Of a stretch of 61,043 nt of DNA, positions 14,166 to 59,830 are shown in pieces. The notes beneath the pieces are model-generated. The model searched no databases. It worked only from the letters and a program-made list of their open reading frames with translations, and was not told the DNA's origin. The translations under genes were made by a program, and so were the position numbers. Source of the stretch: a virus. Positions within the stretch are counted from its first letter, which is position 1; each line of letters opens with the position of its first letter. Where the stretch lies: positions 1 to 61,043 of IMG/VR virus record IMGVR_UViG_3300030117_002966; one strand, written 5' to 3'.

Positions 14166-14576
14166 ATGAAAGTTAAAGAACTTAAAGCAGCCCTAAAAGA
14201 ATTAGGTCTTCCAATAAAAGGTAAGAAGGCTGAGTTAGAAGCAAGATTAGCAGAAGCTCAGTTACCTGAGGAAGAAGAAGCTATTGAAGATGAAGTTGTC
14301 GAGGAAGTAGCTCAAGAAGAACTCGAAGAGGAAGTTGAAGAAGTAGAAGAAGAAGTTGAAGAAGAAGAGGAGGTTGTTACTCTAGAAATAGAAGAAGAAC
14401 CTATGGACAAAGTTAAACCAGTTCACAATCCTTTAACTAACATCTTGAGATTCAACCCTCGCACCGGTGACCGTGAACCTATGCAAGTTAAAAAACTTGA
14501 CATACAAGAACACATCAACGGTGATTATGGTATGGGCGATATTATATTACCCCAGACCGACGAAGAAGAAGAATAG
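14166..14576 (+). CDS. SAP-domain DNA-binding protein with acidic region
   Basis: AAGGAGG (14154-14160) precedes ATG 14166. Residues 1-32 (KVKELKAALKELGLPIKGKK, then ELEARLAEA) form a clear SAP helix-extension-helix motif, which binds DNA. A long Glu/Val run follows (about 36-80), then a folded-looking C-terminus with NPLTNILRFNPRTGDREPM. The acidic linker resembles those of archaeal and phage DNA-binding accessory proteins. It may organise viral DNA or link replication proteins. Confidence 0.75.
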   Translation: MKVKELKAALKELGLPIKGKKAELEARLAEAQLPEEEEAIEDEVVEEVAQEELEEEVEEVEEEVEEEEEVVTLEIEEEPMDKVKPVHNPLTNILRFNPRTGDREPMQVKKLDIQEHINGDYGMGDIILPQTDEEEE

Positions 14577-55017: not shown

Positions 55018-55356
55018 ATGTATAGTCAGAGGTTAAGAAATATGAACGAAAAATATTACATCTATAAACTAGCCAGACAGGTAGAAAAAACAAGCTACCA
55101 TCACTATGACGTCCGAATGGGCGACGGAATAAACAGCGGAGCCGTTTACTATGGTCTAACTCAAGACCCTCAATCAAGGCTTTCAAAACACCGACCTAAA
55201 AAAGGTCATGATATCAGCTTGATAGTAGTAGCTGAATTTGACAACCCATGGGAAGCTTTAGAACATGAAGCAACTTTGGTAGCTGAGCATTTCCGCACCT
55301 ACGGAAAAGAGCCAGAATGTCAAGGCATGGCCAACACCGGCCACAGGGGGGCATAA
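55018..55356 (+). CDS. GIY-YIG-like nuclease domain protein
   Basis: The 112-aa product has KYYIYKLARQ (GIY equivalent) and GAVYYGLTQDPQSRLSKH (YIG equivalent, with downstream Arg/His), followed by SLIVVAEFDNPWEALEHEAT, where the Glu would be the metal ligand. This is a compact single-domain GIY-YIG layout. The N-terminal GIY is altered to YIY. ATG 55042 (MNEKYYIY) is an alternative start with AGAGG upstream. Freestanding GIY-YIG proteins in viruses are homing or DNA-repair nucleases. Confidence 0.6.
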   Translation: MYSQRLRNMNEKYYIYKLARQVEKTSYHHYDVRMGDGINSGAVYYGLTQDPQSRLSKHRPKKGHDISLIVVAEFDNPWEALEHEATLVAEHFRTYGKEPECQGMANTGHRGA

Positions 55357-55956: not shown

Positions 55957-55988
55957 GAGGGGGTATATAAACCCCCTCAAAAATTTTT
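55957..55988 (+). terminator. Intrinsic-like terminator with T-run
   Basis: GAGGGGG-(8 nt)-CCCCCTC (55957-55963 with 55972-55978) is followed by AAAAATTTTT. It closes the GIY-YIG operon. Its T-run merges with the palindromic operator at 55985. Confidence 0.75.
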
Positions 55989-56004
55989 CCACGCGTGTGA
56001 AAAA
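55985..56004. promoter_or_regulatory. Palindromic operator, copy 1
   Basis: TTTTCCAC-GCGT-GTGAAAAA. The arms match in 7 of 8 positions around a 4-base spacer. It is the only copy placed about 35 bases upstream of its TATA box (56040) rather than directly against it. A second inverted-looking AAATTTTCACC follows. Confidence 0.65.
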
Positions 56005-56510: not shown

Positions 56511-56522
56511 AAAGCTTATATA
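56511..56522 (+). promoter_or_regulatory. TATA promoter with TTGGTA element
   Basis: AAAGCTTATATAGGGACTGC, then CTATTGGTAATACAGAGG 29 bases on. Same architecture as at 57917. The leader carries CAGAGGAAA before ATG 56555. Confidence 0.75.
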
Positions 56523-56554
56523 GGGACTGCCTATTGGTAATACAGAGGAAAAAC

Positions 56555-56662
56555 ATGAAACCAACACTAAAACAAATAATGAGACAGACCATGCTTCTAA
56601 GAAAGTTCCGCAAGGAATGGGAAGCAGAAATAATGAAAAAAGGAATGGAGGAAAACGAATGA
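56555..56662 (+). CDS. Basic helical micro-protein, 35 aa
   Basis: MKPTLKQIMRQTMLLRKFRK then EWEAEIMKKGMEENE is a single long amphipathic helix, basic first and acidic last. It has its own promoter and CAGAGGAAA leader. No family is recognised. Confidence 0.5.
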   Translation: MKPTLKQIMRQTMLLRKFRKEWEAEIMKKGMEENE

Positions 56663-56727
56663 ATAAATATCAATCATCCTTACTAACTTGGTTAGTAGGA
56701 ATATCATACGCAACAAGAAAATTATAA
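56659..56727 (+). CDS. Possible membrane micropeptide, 22 aa
   Basis: ATG 56659 lies in the upstream stop, and TAA is at 56725-56727. The sequence SSLLTWLVGISYATRKL is a short hydrophobic helix with a basic end. Its 3' end overlaps the TATA box of the following RNA. It could be a coupling artefact. Confidence 0.3.
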   Translation: MNKYQSSLLTWLVGISYATRKL

Positions 56728-56729
56728 AC
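56719..56729 (+). promoter_or_regulatory. Probable promoter of structured RNA 1
   Basis: AAAATTATAAACATG is TATA-like; its centre (about 56725) lies 22-25 bases before the first G of the P1 stem at 56747, consistent with the spacing seen elsewhere. BRE is weaker than at other sites. Confidence 0.5.
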
Positions 56730-56746
56730 ATGTAAACACCTCTAAC

Positions 56747-57030
56747 GGGTGGGGAAGATGAAAATAGCAAAATAGTATTGCACCCCACCCAAAAGAGATT
56801 ATGTTCCATGAGTCCCCAACACTGTAAGATGTGGCCGTAGGAGTAGGTGCACCTTTTGGAAGAGGCAAGTGTATCAGTGAGTCTAATAAACTTTCGAGCA
56901 TGGGGACAAGAGGGGTTGCCTGACAAGTGATGGCGAAGGGCCAGTGACATAAGCCCGCCCGAACGTTAAACGTAGCGACGTGACCCCAGCCCAGTGAGTC
57001 GGCCACCTCTAGGTGGTGGGGCAGCTGGGC
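56747..57030 (+). ncRNA. Structured RNA candidate 1 (P1 stem plus 27-nt conserved core)
   Basis: No convincing reading frame covers this 284-nt GC-rich segment. It begins with GGGTGGGG (56747-56754) pairing perfectly with CCCCACCC (56783-56790) around a core (56756-56782) identical in candidate 2. Further helices are visible. GTCCCCA (56812-56818) pairs with TGGGGAC (56901-56907). CCACCT (57003-57008) forms a stem with AGGTGG (57011-57016). GCCCAG (56989-56994) pairs with CTGGGC (57025-57030). A T-run follows at 57033. The 9-mer CCTGACAAG (56919-56927) is also shared with candidate 2. Confidence 0.7.
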
Positions 57031-57032
57031 GC

Positions 57033-57052
57033 TTTTCCACACGGGTGGAAAA
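57033..57052. promoter_or_regulatory. Palindromic operator, copy 2 (perfect)
   Basis: TTTTCCAC-ACGG-GTGGAAAA has perfect 8-base arms. Its right arm runs straight into AACCTTTATATAGG, so it overlaps the BRE of the promoter at 57055. As RNA its T-rich left arm may also end RNA 1. Confidence 0.7.
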
Positions 57053-57054
57053 AC

Positions 57055-57064
57055 CTTTATATAG
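57055..57064 (+). promoter_or_regulatory. TATA promoter with TTGGTAT element
   Basis: ACCTTTATATAGGCAGACCC, then GTTGGTATATTATG with the ATG at 57084: a leaderless start. Confidence 0.8.
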
Positions 57065-57083
57065 GCAGACCCGTTGGTATATT

Positions 57084-57236
57084 ATGACTAGGAAACACTT
57101 TAGAAAAATAGCTAGTATTCTCCGCGAGAGAAGAGCAGACCCAATGCTAATAAGGGACTTCGCCACAATGTGCGCGCTTGAGAATGAATACTTCGATTAT
57201 GAAAGATTCTACACCGCGGCAGGATTAAAGGAGTAA
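57084..57236 (+). CDS. Leaderless basic micro-protein, 50 aa
   Basis: The start is ATG 57084, fixed by the TATA box and the TTGGTATATT element; an upstream in-frame ATG would lie before the promoter. MTRKHFRKIASILRERRADP, then a helix (LIRDFATMCALENEYFDYER). The N-terminal half is strongly basic. No family is recognised. Confidence 0.65.
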   Translation: MTRKHFRKIASILRERRADPMLIRDFATMCALENEYFDYERFYTAAGLKE

Positions 57237-57248
57237 AGCTTATATAGG
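57237..57248 (+). promoter_or_regulatory. TATA promoter with TTGGTAT element
   Basis: AAAGCTTATATAGGCACACT, then CATTGGTATACTATG; ATG 57267 is leaderless. It starts inside the stop region of the previous gene. Confidence 0.8.
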
Positions 57249-57266
57249 CACACTCATTGGTATACT

Positions 57267-57410
57267 ATGACAAAAATACAAGACATGAGAAACGACTTTC
57301 GTTTCCGCCGAGCACCACGCAGAACCATCACTAAAAACAAGATTGACTTAGGAGTCCATGAGCAACTCATGGCTATCCGTCTAGGTCTTGCTGAGGATGT
57401 GAGAAAGTGA
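57267..57410 (+). CDS. Leaderless basic micro-protein, 47 aa
   Basis: ATG 57267 to TGA 57408-57410. MTKIQDMRNDFRFRRAPRRT is Arg-rich; the rest is a helix (GVHEQLMAIRLGLAEDVRK). It starts with MT, like other genes of this promoter family. No family is recognised. Confidence 0.6.
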   Translation: MTKIQDMRNDFRFRRAPRRTITKNKIDLGVHEQLMAIRLGLAEDVRK

Positions 57411-57523
57411 GAAGCATCTTAGATATTTTAGATGACATGGTCATCTCTGGTATAGATGACGCAGGGGACTATATTGTCCTCTGTGGCTGTGAAGACGCAC
57501 CTTGTTGCGGGTGTAACAGATGA
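57407..57523 (+). CDS. Cys-rich micro-protein, 38 aa
   Basis: GTG 57407 overlaps the upstream stop. An acidic helix (RSILDILDDMVISGIDDAGD) precedes a dense Cys cluster (CGCEDAPCCGCNR, five Cys), probably metal-binding. Stop is TGA 57521-57523, overlapping the next ATG. Confidence 0.5.
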   Translation: MRSILDILDDMVISGIDDAGDYIVLCGCEDAPCCGCNR

Positions 57524-57594
57524 GTTACGACAAACCACTCAAACGCAGTTGGAAAAAAGAAACAAATAAGATTATCAAAAAGGCCAGCCAATAG
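57520..57594 (+). CDS. Basic micropeptide, 24 aa
   Basis: ATG 57520 to TAG 57592-57594 encodes MSYDKPLKRSWKKETNKIIK with a KASQ end. It is coupled to the Cys-rich gene. It may be real but is very short. Confidence 0.35.
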   Translation: MSYDKPLKRSWKKETNKIIKKASQ

Positions 57595-57614
57595 CTCGTT
57601 TGTTTTCAACCTCC

Positions 57615-57641
57615 GGGGGGTAGGGCCTCCCCCCACCTTTT
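57615..57641 (+). terminator. GC hairpin and T-run terminator
   Basis: GGGGGG (57615-57620) pairs with CCCCCC (57629-57634), followed by ACCTTTT. The T-run is the left arm of the next palindromic operator, as at 55985. Confidence 0.7.
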
Positions 57642-57657
57642 CCACGCGAGTGAAAAA
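57638..57657. promoter_or_regulatory. Palindromic operator, copy 3
   Basis: TTTTCCAC-GCGA-GTGAAAAA, 7 of 8 arm matches. It is followed after 3 bases by TTTATATAG, so it covers the BRE of the promoter at 57660. Confidence 0.7.
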
Positions 57658-57659
57658 AT

Positions 57660-57669
57660 CTTTATATAG
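57660..57669 (+). promoter_or_regulatory. TATA promoter with TTGGTAT element
   Basis: ATCTTTATATAGACCCCCAC, then GCTTGGTATTGTATG; ATG 57690 is leaderless. Confidence 0.8.
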
Positions 57670-57689
57670 ACCCCCACGCTTGGTATTGT

Positions 57690-57926
57690 ATGACTAAAAA
57701 CTTGTGCGGGAAAACCCGAAAGACAGATGACCCTTATGAGGTCTGGACTGGCCCACGTGGCTTTGAATGGAGAGTATTGAAGAAATACCAAGCTCCTGAG
57801 AATGAAGCAAAAAATCCTCACGCTAGATGGTTTTGTGCTGTCAAATCAGATTTCACCTATGGTTCTTTTGAATTAGGTGATGTCTATGTTAGTGAGATTA
57901 AATCAATGGGGACAAAGCTTATATAG
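57690..57926 (+). CDS. Leaderless hypothetical protein, 78 aa
   Basis: The product is beta-rich: DPYEVWTGPRGFEWRVLKKY, HARWFCAVKSDFTYGSFELG, GDVYVSEIKSMGTKLI. It may be a small barrel. The promoter of RNA 2 lies over its last codons, so its 3' end and that promoter share sequence (GGGGACAAAGCTTATATAGG). No family is recognised. Confidence 0.65.
   Translation: MTKNLCGKTRKTDDPYEVWTGPRGFEWRVLKKYQAPENEAKNPHARWFCAVKSDFTYGSFELGDVYVSEIKSMGTKLI
57915..57926 (+). promoter_or_regulatory. Promoter of structured RNA 2
   Basis: CAAAGCTTATATAGGCACAC, then CTATTGGTAATACAGAGCGG. The start should fall near 57946, i.e. at the first base of the P1 stem (57948). It nearly duplicates the promoter at 56511. Confidence 0.75.
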
Positions 57927-57947
57927 GCACACCCTATTGGTAATACA

Positions 57948-58375
57948 GAGCGGGGAGATGAAAATAGCAAAATAGTATTGCACCCGCTCACTTACAGTTA
58001 TCAGCTGTAACACGTGACCTGACAAGGAAACAAAATCGAACCATACGCCAGTAGACGAACACTACATAACAAACTTAAGCTGAACAGTGCTGACCAATCC
58101 CTTACCGGTCGATGGCCATCTTAGTAGATTTACGACGTGCAGCTAACATTATGTATCACCTTTGAATCACTTAGTCCCTGTTATAAGTCAAGTCGTCGAA
58201 GCTATGAGTATCACACCTGTTCTTGCTTGTGTTCACCTTTCGTGAAGGATATCCTTTTGACTGGTGACAGGTCACACCCTATGGGTTGCTACCTATGAAG
58301 ATTGTCGCGCCCTCGGCAACCGCTCCCTGAGGTGTTTCTTAAACACGCGGAGCCTCAGGTGAAGTTGCATTTTAT
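57948..58375 (+). ncRNA. Structured RNA candidate 2 (P1 stem plus the same core)
   Basis: This 428-nt gene-free segment begins with GAGCGGG (57948-57954) pairing with CCCGCTC (57983-57989) around a core (57956-57982) identical to candidate 1. The stem sides differ from candidate 1 but still pair perfectly. Next is a TTACAG / CTGTAA hairpin (57992-57997 with 58005-58010), then CCTGACAAG (58018-58026), also in candidate 1. The 3' end has GTGTTT-CTT-AAACAC nested in CCTGAGG / CCTCAGG (58326-58359), then a T-rich stretch. A strong dedicated promoter precedes it. Confidence 0.75.
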
Positions 58376-58395
58376 TTTTCCACGCGTGTGAAAAA
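58376..58395. promoter_or_regulatory. Palindromic operator, copy 4
   Basis: TTTTCCAC-GCGT-GTGAAAAA, followed directly by AGCTTTATATAGG, so its right arm abuts the BRE/TATA of the next promoter. Confidence 0.7.
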
Positions 58396-58397
58396 AG

Positions 58398-58408
58398 CTT
58401 TATATAGG
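58398..58408 (+). promoter_or_regulatory. TATA promoter with TTGGTAT element
   Basis: AAGCTTTATATAGGGTGGTG, then CTCTTGGTATTGTATG; ATG 58428 is leaderless. Confidence 0.8.
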
Positions 58409-58427
58409 GTGGTGCTCTTGGTATTGT

Positions 58428-58664
58428 ATGACTAATAACATCGTCACAAAAAGTAATCTTCCTTGGAAGAATGGTAGGCAAGAAGTCGACTACTTCGTAG
58501 AAGTCGGCACAACTCCATACGGTAAGTATGGTTTATACAAAGAGATGGTTCCTGTCGGCACAGGTAGCCGAGGAGCTCACCGAGCTGTAGCTGAGGAAAT
58601 CAAAATGTCCAATCCTGAGATATTTGAGAACCTCGAACTAAGGCAAGTAATCAGCAGGGGATAA
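58428..58664 (+). CDS. Leaderless hypothetical protein, 78 aa
   Basis: The product looks like a small beta-alpha protein: EVDYFVEVGTTPYGKYGLYK, MVPVGTGSRGAHRAVAEEIK, and a helical NPEIFENLELRQVI end. TYR/GLY-rich first half may form a hairpin that binds nucleic acid. No family is recognised. Its stop overlaps the next promoter (GGGGATAAGCTTAAGTAG). Confidence 0.65.
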   Translation: MTNNIVTKSNLPWKNGRQEVDYFVEVGTTPYGKYGLYKEMVPVGTGSRGAHRAVAEEIKMSNPEIFENLELRQVISRG

Positions 58665-58673
58665 GCTTAAGTA
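58663..58673 (+). promoter_or_regulatory. TATA-variant promoter with TTGGTAT element
   Basis: ATAAGCTTAAGTAGACCCTC, then TGTTGGTATACTATG; ATG 58695 is leaderless. The TATA box (CTTAAGTA) is poorer than in its siblings. Confidence 0.7.
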
Positions 58674-58694
58674 GACCCTCTCTGTTGGTATACT

Positions 58695-59030
58695 ATGACT
58701 AAAGCAAAAATGGATTATCTTTGGGCTCCTAAGTCCGAAGGTATTGTTAGCGGAATACTTGACCACATCGGTATCACAAAGGTTGGAACTTCAGCCAGAT
58801 ACCCAACCGGTGTTAAGTATGATTGTTTGATTGCAATCGCAGATGTTCTTTCTTCCCACGAAGAATTCGCATCTATGGTAGCTTCATCAACTCATGGCTT
58901 CCAAGCCAAACGTAAAGTAGAAGGAACTCGTGCTCCATCTGTTGATTCAGTTGTTTCAGCTCTTGCCTCTGGTAAGATGTCAGAAGCAGATTTGAAATCA
59001 GCTATGAAAAAAGCAGGACTACTTAAGTAA
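58695..59030 (+). CDS. Leaderless hypothetical protein, 111 aa
   Basis: The longest product of the mini-gene family. MTKAKMDYLWAPKSEGIVSG, then VKYDCLIAIADVLSSHEEFA, a Ser-rich middle and a helical end (MSEADLKSAMKKAGLLK) that resembles a helix-extension-helix. Codon use is more balanced and its DNA less AT-rich than its neighbours. No family is recognised. Confidence 0.7.
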   Translation: MTKAKMDYLWAPKSEGIVSGILDHIGITKVGTSARYPTGVKYDCLIAIADVLSSHEEFASMVASSTHGFQAKRKVEGTRAPSVDSVVSALASGKMSEADLKSAMKKAGLLK

Positions 59031-59045
59031 GACAAACTAAGAAGC

Positions 59046-59352
59046 TGGGCAACTCAGAAAACTGCCCACCTTATTCTTAAGGAAGTAGCTCTTCCTTATC
59101 GGGTATGGCCGAATAAGTCCGCCACGGACTAAGGCACAGGGCACGCAAACCAAGAACCGACTGGTGGAGGAATGCGTGACTGGTAACGCGTCTACACTGT
59201 AGTGGCATAACGCGTTTGGGGGTATACAGCAAGGCCCCCTACCCACCTTATTGTCATCAATAATTGACACGCCCCCTTGAGATGGTTAACGACGCGAAAG
59301 TATCGACATCAAATCCACCGCTGGCGCCAGTGTATAAATTGGAGGGGGCACC
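59046..59352 (+). ncRNA. Structured RNA candidate 3
   Basis: No gene is visible between 59031 and 59937. The first ~310 nt are GC-rich and full of inverted repeats: TGGGCA (59046-59051) with TGCCCA (59063-59068), an AGTCCG-CCA-CGGACT hairpin near 59117-59131, AACGCG / CGCGTT (about 59186-59217) enclosing CTAC-ACT-GTAG, and GCCCCC (59270-59275) with GGGGGC (about 59344-59349). It lacks the 27-nt core of candidates 1 and 2. A weak TATA-like ACTTAAGTAAG (59019-59029) could start it; read-through from 58695 is the alternative. Confidence 0.5.
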
Positions 59353-59356
59353 TCAT

Positions 59357-59376
59357 TTTTCCACGCGCGTGAAACT
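59357..59376. promoter_or_regulatory. Palindromic operator, copy 5 (diverged)
   Basis: TTTTCCAC-GCGC-GTGAAACT: left arm identical to the other copies, right arm 6 of 8. No TATA box follows directly; it borders the iteron-rich region instead. Confidence 0.6.
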
Positions 59377-59830
59377 TTTCATATCTTCTCAGCTCAGCTC
59401 TACTCAGCTCCCATTTCTTTTTGCTCTATAGAGCCGTAAGGCGCGGTGAGAAAACAGGTTCTCAGTTCAGAACCACAAACCAGCACTACAACGCACAGCG
59501 GGGGTGAGAAACTACCAGAGTTCTCAGTAGGGCTAAGCTCGACTGAGCACTTTCGGTAGGCCAGAATGAGAAAATGGTTAGTAGAGCTTATAATAATTAT
59601 AATATTCTCTCAGTTTAGCATGAAATGTGTTCGTGCTGAAACTGTAAATATAATCTCAGTAAGCCCTATATTAAAATGCTCTACATCGCAAAGCTCTACT
59701 GAGTAATTAAGCTCTACTTAGTATGGCTCTACTTAGTTAAGCTATACTAAGCTCTTTTACTTCAGCTATAATGTGCATAACTAAGCTATATCTTAATATA
59801 GTTAATATAGAGAATACGAACTATATAAGG
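59377..59830. repeat. Iteron-rich gene-free region, possible replication origin
   Basis: Repeated motifs built on AGCTCTACTNAGT occur throughout: CAGCTCAGCTCTACTCAGCT (from about 59390), CTAAGCTCGACTGAGC (about 59543), then four units in tandem at 59691-59754: AAGCTCTACTGAGT, AAGCTCTACTTAGT, GGCTCTACTTAGTT and AAGCTATACTAAGCTC, 14-18 bases apart. A GAGAACTG-like set of TTCTCAG repeats lies at 59385-59530. AT-rich DNA (59588-59610, 59789-59820) flanks them. This is the usual anatomy of an iteron origin. No Rep gene is adjacent. Confidence 0.55.

What the first reader, a model, noticed from the sequence alone, without database searches (positions are those of the whole stretch)
56747..58375. 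Pair of virus-encoded structured RNAs with a shared core and compensatory base changes in the closing stem
Two gene-free segments 1200 bases apart begin with an identical 27-nt core (56756-56782 and 57956-57982). In copy 1 it is enclosed by GGGTGGGG/CCCCACCC, in copy 2 by GAGCGGG/CCCGCTC. Position by position the stem shows G-C to C-G, U-A to G-C and G-C to A-U changes, all preserving pairing, while the core does not change. Covariation of this kind is direct evidence for selection on RNA structure. Each copy begins where a TATA box predicts transcription to start and ends near a T-run. They share CCTGACAAG about 130 and 30 nt after P1 respectively. I cannot match them to RNase P, SRP, 6S-like, C/D or H/ACA RNAs.
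Basis: partly seen in the sequence, partly recalled or inferred. Interest (0 to 1): 0.93.

Follow-up and report, generated by a model that had tools for sequence, protein, structure and literature searches.

The report
Portable RNA hairpin shared by viruses
Marine viruses that probably infect archaea carry a tiny RNA hairpin whose 28-letter centre hardly ever changes while its supporting stem keeps changing in matched pairs; unrelated viruses carry the same centre, attached to different non-coding RNAs, so it is probably a working part that grips something in their shared host.

Summary
An identical 27-nt core sits at 56756-56782 and 57956-57982, each inside a different perfect stem. I found the core in 32 other IMG/VR virus records (36 copies in 33 records, counting the window; some records are near-duplicates). 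Its 28 nt are almost invariant. The enclosing stem P1 covaries strongly (39 double-change cells against 11.7 in shuffles; no shuffle reaches the score). An inner helix, GYAA/UURC, shows a C-G to U-A compensation.

The two copies are not two members of one 280-430-nt RNA family. A roughly 44-nt domain ('H1') has been attached to two unrelated non-coding RNAs. At the copy-2 site a close relative has the same stem without the core, others have a different invariant hairpin ('H2'), and others have no hairpin. A larger form (H1') adds one arm. H1 often abuts manA RNA and can lie in arrays with tRNA-Glu.

Two virus lineages with unrelated terminases share the core exactly. It is absent from the host-type genomes searched and matches no Rfam family.

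Best reading: an exchangeable RNA domain of stable viral RNAs that binds a shared host factor, possibly as a decoy. The ligand is unknown.

The parts
56747..56790 (+). H1 copy 1: P1 56747-56754/56783-56790; invariant core 56755-56782; inner helix P3 56767-56770/56778-56781 with 7-nt loop AAUAGUA
   Evidence: exact core; covariation on 18 distinct homologues; R1 score 73.6 bits (but it is in the training set)
57948..57989 (+). H1 copy 2: P1 57948-57954/57983-57989; core 57955-57982; P3 57967-57970/57978-57981
   Evidence: the same stem without the core in L011
56796..57031 (+). non-coding RNA A (UUCCAUGAGUCCCC...AGCUGGGCG), downstream of copy 1; boundaries approximate
   Evidence: conserved in related records with or without H1; no Rfam match
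57918..57926 (+). TATA box CTTATATAG of the copy-2 transcript, 28-30 nt before the H1 stem
57990..58379 (+). non-coding RNA B downstream of copy 2, ending near the T-run 58370-58379
   Evidence: related stretches in G007, G033, G029, G023, L008 and L011; the L011 stretch, which includes the upstream flank, is 94.9% identical
56515..56523 (+). nearest TATA box upstream of copy 1, ahead of two small ORFs
56659..56727 (+). 22-aa ORF MNKYQSSLLTWLVGISYATRKL, conserved a short way upstream of H1/H1' in many relatives
59078..59249 (+). manA RNA (RF01745); in six relatives manA abuts H1 or H1' directly
   Evidence: 69.2 bits, E 1.5e-15; adjacency

Best explanation
H1 is a small, self-folding RNA domain that tailed viruses of marine (probably archaeal) hosts attach to various stable non-coding transcripts. 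Shown: the stem P1 and inner helix P3 are kept by selection on pairing; the 28-nt core between them is nearly invariant; the domain is portable (same stem with or without the core, swapped for H2, extended as H1', shared between virus lineages with unrelated terminases); and it often sits beside manA RNA and sometimes tRNA-Glu. Inferred: the invariant core is a binding surface for one conserved partner. Because unrelated virus lineages carry the same core, the partner is more likely a host macromolecule, most simply a protein, than a virus-lineage protein. The viral transcript presents the domain in trans, most plausibly as a decoy or antagonist (for example RNA-antitoxin-like or counter-defence), and modules are gained, lost and exchanged as in arms-race loci. 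My probabilities: RNA domain under structural selection 0.95; trans-acting part of stable RNA 0.7; host-protein binding 0.5; decoy or counter-defence role 0.3.
For: P1 and P3 covariation on 18 distinct rows: 39 double-change cells vs 11.7 shuffled, score 0.511 vs 0.159, 0/500 shuffles reach it, and slid pairings collapse. P3 pair C-G becomes U-A in minimal H1 (L340, L356) and in extended H1' (L263, L265, L349); no mixed combination occurred in any copy with a P1. Only four core variants were found, while the terminase protein of H1 carriers diverges to 66% identity. The core is exact in lineage-II records G004, G006 and G013 and one base off in G018; these have no TerL, PolB or capsid match to the window and their own TerL. 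In 129 kb of lineage II the best DNA matches to the window are an acidic low-complexity coding repeat and the H1 region, and the only shared protein is about 50 aa. Four alternative states at the copy-2 site. manA abuts H1 in six relatives. Tandem H1+H1' in L249 and L258. Cyanophage S-CREM1 has an analogous array, manA between two tRNAs and next to a solitary abiF RNA motif; abiF-motif RNA neutralises AbiF toxin by direct binding (PMC12373285).
Against: No partner protein, transcript or phenotype is known. No chromosomal RNA resembling H1 was found (0 of 84,980 species genomes for one pattern; one chance hit in 293 Poseidoniales genomes), so a mimic of a common host RNA is not supported. No toxin or defence gene was recognised beside it, though the neighbours were searched only in Pfam and PHROGs. 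The host is unidentified. A binding RNA could equally be a cis-acting element of the adjacent small ORF or of the ncRNA.
Confidence: 0.5

Rival explanations
1. H1 is a ligand-sensing (riboswitch-like) or cis-regulatory aptamer controlling the adjacent transcript, for example the ncRNA behind it or the small peptide gene before it.
For: An invariant core on a variable stem is the usual look of an aptamer; H1' is a three-way-junction version of the same core; neighbouring manA was filed as a riboswitch candidate (PMC2864571).
Against: No consistent downstream ORF or expression platform: H1 lies at the 5' end of a ncRNA, in the 3' region of a peptide gene, next to manA, and in lineage II near the 3' end of an array. 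It is absent from cellular genomes, where metabolite riboswitches usually occur.
Confidence: 0.2
2. H1 is a processing element: a small self-cleaving ribozyme or a nuclease recognition hairpin that frees stable RNAs from a polycistron.
For: It lies at boundaries between RNA modules and beside manA, with a recurrent ACCUUA-like tail after the stem.
Against: No match to any Rfam ribozyme at E<=10. At copy 2 it sits at the transcription start, where processing has nothing to remove. Cores are optional at otherwise identical boundaries.
Confidence: 0.12
3. H1 is a DNA-level element: a recombination or hairpin insertion site, or a tiny mobile element, that spreads as DNA.
For: Exact core grafted into an existing stem-loop (window vs L011); identical core in unrelated viruses; GIY-YIG-like endonuclease gene nearby at 55018-55356.
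Against: Stems are not carried with the core, and they compensate base by base at the orthologous site (GC, GU, AU). No target-site duplication was seen. The core tolerates a paired C-G to U-A change, as RNA would. Copies seen lie in non-coding stretches next to other structured RNAs.
Confidence: 0.1
4. H1 is an antisense guide pairing with a host or viral RNA, or an RNA mimic of a CRISPR repeat.
For: Long invariant single-stranded stretches; phage RNA mimics exist as a class (pseudo-ToxI, PMC3475682).
Against: Complementarity and similarity to 463 kb around Poseidoniales 16S genes and to the window are no better than shuffled cores. The near-full core pattern, either strand, is absent from 84,980 genomes, so no CRISPR repeat there matches.
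Confidence: 0.06
5. The core is conserved because it encodes a five-codon peptide, AUG AAA AUA GCA AAA UAG.
For: The ORF is present in all copies, and the G/A variant is a UAG to UAA stop change.
Against: The sense-codon changes seen are second-position replacements (AAA to AUA, GCA to GUA), and no third-position change occurs within the four sense codons; the GCA to GUA change is always matched in P3. No ribosome-binding spacing is conserved.
Confidence: 0.02

Closest known systems
manA RNA motif (RF01745)
   Same: Marine virus structured RNA; directly adjacent to H1 in six relatives and present in the window 1.1 kb downstream
   Different: manA is about 190 nt with a different fold and sequence; H1 does not match it
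abiF RNA motif (RF03085) and type III toxin-antitoxin RNAs (ToxI, TenpI, CptI)
   Same: Short (34-50 nt) structured RNA units, sometimes in tandem; a solitary abiF motif lies in a phage RNA array beside manA and tRNAs (PMC9964418)
   Different: No sequence or model match, no toxin recognised nearby, and no H1 copy found in host genomes
PhiTE pseudo-ToxI (phage RNA antitoxin mimic, PMC3475682)
   Same: Precedent for a virus RNA domain neutralising a host factor
   Different: pseudo-ToxI copies a host RNA; no host original of H1 was found
GOLLD, ROOL and OLE large ornate RNAs
   Same: Large structured non-coding RNAs of bacteria and phages with no coding role (PMC12286853 abstract; phage occurrence from own knowledge)
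   Different: Those are hundreds of nt and homo-oligomeric; H1 is a 44-nt portable domain
Small aptamer or ribozyme motifs in general
   Same: Invariant core enclosed by variable stems
   Different: No known class matches in Rfam; comparison with the hammerhead core order fails (sequence inspection only)

Membership tests
manA RNA (RF01745) | covariance model score above gathering cut-off | tested here: met
   window 59078-59249 scores 69.2 against 55.2; H1 itself does not match
any Rfam 15 family, for H1 | covariance model match | tested here: not met
   no match overlapping H1, RNA A or RNA B even at E<=10 in 56600-59400; none in relatives
type III / AbiF RNA antitoxin | RNA model match or tandem repeats next to a toxin gene | tested here: not met
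   no abiF match; neighbouring proteins have no toxin family in Pfam or PHROGs; PADLOC not searched
type III / AbiF RNA antitoxin | binds and neutralises a ribonuclease toxin | not testable with these tools
   needs biochemistry
riboswitch | consistent position in 5' UTR of related genes with an expression platform | tested here: not met
   contexts are mixed
riboswitch | ligand-dependent structural change | not testable with these tools
   needs probing
self-cleaving ribozyme | match to a known class | tested here: not met
   no Rfam ribozyme hit
self-cleaving ribozyme | cleavage activity | not testable with these tools
   needs in vitro assay
CRISPR-repeat mimic (small RNA anti-CRISPR) | same sequence as a host CRISPR repeat | tested here: not met
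   near-full core pattern absent from 84,980 species genomes; the true host may not be among them
C/D or H/ACA guide RNA | C/D boxes or H/ACA hairpin with ACA | tested here: not met
   no CUGA D box in the core; no Rfam match; sequence inspection

The most novel reading that the evidence does not exclude
Unrelated tailed viruses of marine archaea share a common stock of interchangeable RNA domains (H1, H2, manA and others) that they attach to stable non-coding RNAs and tRNA arrays, forming an RNA-based counter-defence or host-takeover locus with a new class of RNA decoy that targets one conserved archaeal factor.
Probability: 0.25. Interest if true: 0.88.

Novelty: new variant of a known kind. 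Interest (0 to 1): 0.66.

Why it matters
Structured RNAs of archaeal viruses are hardly described. This one has a 28-nt core unchanged between viruses with unrelated terminases, paired-base evidence for its fold, and natural experiments (same stem with and without the core) that show it is a removable part. It gives a concrete bait for finding the host factor it binds. It also suggests that manA, filed as cis-regulatory, is a stable-RNA neighbour of tRNAs and other RNA modules in both archaeal-type and cyanobacterial viruses.

Tried and rejected
Antisense to rRNA or viral RNA: longest matches equal shuffled controls.

Host copy: 0 of 84,980 genomes by pattern; 293 Poseidoniales genomes gave one 31-bit hit that lies inside a protein-coding gene with mismatches in P1 and P3, rejected as chance.

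manA in 194 Poseidoniales genomes: none, but no positive control rang, so uninformative.

Isolated phages: no DNA match to either segment.

Mini-ORF coding: rejected from codon positions.

Many extra hits of loose DNA patterns are coding-sequence chance matches without P1 and were discarded.

MFE folding of the whole 290- and 431-nt segments is weak evidence (z -1.87 and -0.90); the covariation carries the case. Thermodynamic folding does not always choose P3 (copy 2 and L356).

Host assignment by viral tRNA-Glu: best 78% to Poseidoniales tRNAs, inconclusive.

Full report
WHAT IS THERE. The window is a 61,043-bp virus record with terminase, portal, HK97-type capsid, family B DNA polymerase and ribonucleotide reductase genes; its terminase is nearest, at 22%, to Halogranum tailed virus 1. 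The 27-nt core at 56756-56782 and 57956-57982 is exact, and none is expected by chance. Five nearby genes have ATG at +28/+29 from the first base of a TATA box, which is archaeal-type leaderless architecture. The same spacing puts the copy-2 transcription start 1-2 nt before its stem. Copy 1 has no promoter of its own; the nearest TATA is at 56515, before two small ORFs.

HOMOLOGUES. Successive pattern scans of IMG/VR and model R1 give 32 other records with the core inside a pairing stem (33 with the window, 36 copies; some records are near-duplicates). Loose-pattern hits lacking a stem are coding-sequence chance hits. The core is AAGAUGA(A/U)AAUAG(C/U)AAAAUA(G/A)UAUU(G/A)C plus one base, with only four variants over the 24 nt from AUG and rare changes in the flanking AAG.

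STRUCTURE. On 18 distinct minimal copies, P1 plus P3 gives 92.6% standard pairs, 8 of 12 pairs with double changes, and 39 double-change cells against 11.7 in shuffles; no shuffle reaches the covariation score, and sliding the partners destroys the signal. P3 (GYAA/UURC) carries a C-G to U-A compensation in L340 and L356 (minimal) and in L263, L265 and L349 (extended), and a mixed state was never seen in a copy with a P1. The orthologous copy-1 site shows the path G-C (window), G-U (L002, L011), A-U (L008) at one P1 pair. Eleven records (two of them near-identical) carry an extended form H1', with a further covarying hairpin between P1 and the core. L249 and L258 carry H1 and H1' in tandem.

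PORTABILITY. Relatives of the copy-2 RNA show four states at its 5' end. The window has GAGCGGG-core-CCCGCTC; L011 (94.9% identical around it) has the same stem closed by a short loop with no core; L007, L008 and L213 have GAGAGAG/CTCTCTC around a different invariant loop (H2); G033 and G029 have no hairpin. RNA A, downstream of copy 1, likewise occurs with H1, H1', H1+H2 or nothing. So the in-window 'compensatory changes' mostly reflect one core carried on two different stems. H2 is a second motif of the same design: stem-UUCA-GGN-GCCGAAU-N'CC-G-stem, 12 distinct rows, 9 pairs with double changes against 5.4 shuffled, 0/500.

REACH. H1 carriers with a detectable terminase are 66-100% identical to the window's. 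A second lineage (G004, G006, G013, G018) has no terminase, polymerase or capsid match to the window, and L004 in it has a different terminase and portal. Three of these four carry the exact core and G018 differs by one base. In 129 kb of lineage II the best DNA matches to the window are an acidic low-complexity coding repeat (window 14284-14371) and the H1 region; the one shared protein is a 50-aa ORF (60% over 45 aa). An identical core in viruses with unrelated core genes points to a common external partner. No copy was found in 84,980 species genomes with one near-full pattern, and only one chance hit in 293 Poseidoniales genomes.

SETTING. In L015, L016, L107, L256, L263 and L340, H1 or H1' begins within about 8 nt of the end of a manA match (overlapping by 3 nt in L016). 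Three of these manA matches (L016, L263, L340) and the L256 one score below Rfam's gathering cut-off, at E 3.5e-10 to 4.5e-9. L107 continues to another structured-looking RNA and tRNA-Glu; L106 and L265 also have tRNA-Glu after the hairpin; L258 has tRNA-Glu on the same record. Cyanophage S-CREM1 has wcaG, two tRNAs, manA, tRNA-Asn, a solitary abiF RNA motif and tRNA-Gly in one row (PMC9964418). The abiF-motif RNA of C. difficile neutralises its toxin by direct binding (PMC12373285), and a phage ToxI mimic is known (PMC3475682). This is precedent for RNA domains in viral arrays acting on host proteins; it is analogy, not proof.

JUDGEMENT. That H1 is an RNA domain under selection for structure is as well shown as sequence data allow. 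That it is a part attached to stable viral RNAs follows from its contexts. That it binds a host factor is inferred from the invariant core and the two lineages. A decoy or counter-defence role is my leading but unproven mechanism. Aptamer-switch, processing, DNA-element and antisense readings are weighed in the rivals list.

Noticed in passing
L007:3029-3064 and 12 other loci: H2, a second portable hairpin with an invariant UUCA-GGN-GCCGAAU-N'CC-G core and covarying stem; its inner hairpin resembles a tRNA T-arm (GG-GCCGAAU-CC against UUCGAAU). Not found in the window itself.
   Followed up: partly
window 55985-56004, 57033-57052, 57638-57657, 58376-58395, 59357-59376: Palindrome TTTTCCACNNNNGTGNAAAA (5 sites, 0.22 matches expected); 57033, 57638 and 58376 lie just upstream of TATA boxes. 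Probably an operator. The T-run after copy 1 is its left arm.
   Followed up: partly
L004, L005, L006, L013, L023, L026, L107, L256, L265; window 59240-59252: A recurrent ACCTTA(C/T)ATT-like tail follows the 3' side of many hairpins and manA; records differ by whole modules inserted between two such tails, suggesting a processing or exchange boundary.
   Followed up: no
window 59078-59249; L358 (S-CREM1): manA lies away from 5' UTR positions here and abuts tRNAs within 0-1 nt in S-CREM1, which argues against a purely cis-regulatory role.
   Followed up: partly
L107:3330-3550, L010:4350-4590, L016, L106: Another conserved structured-looking RNA, (U/G)GACAA..AUGGCGAAG...GGUUGGAAGCCCGUGGUUAGC..., without an Rfam match, near H1 and (L106, L107) before tRNA-Glu.
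   Followed up: no
window 55018-55356: Short GIY-YIG-like ORF near the RNA cluster (E 1.8e-4, just below cut-off); S-CREM1 also has a GIY-YIG gene beside its RNA array.
   Followed up: no
window 57084-57236: 50-aa protein, the only protein found shared between the two H1-bearing virus lineages (60% over 45 aa); no PHROG match.
   Followed up: partly
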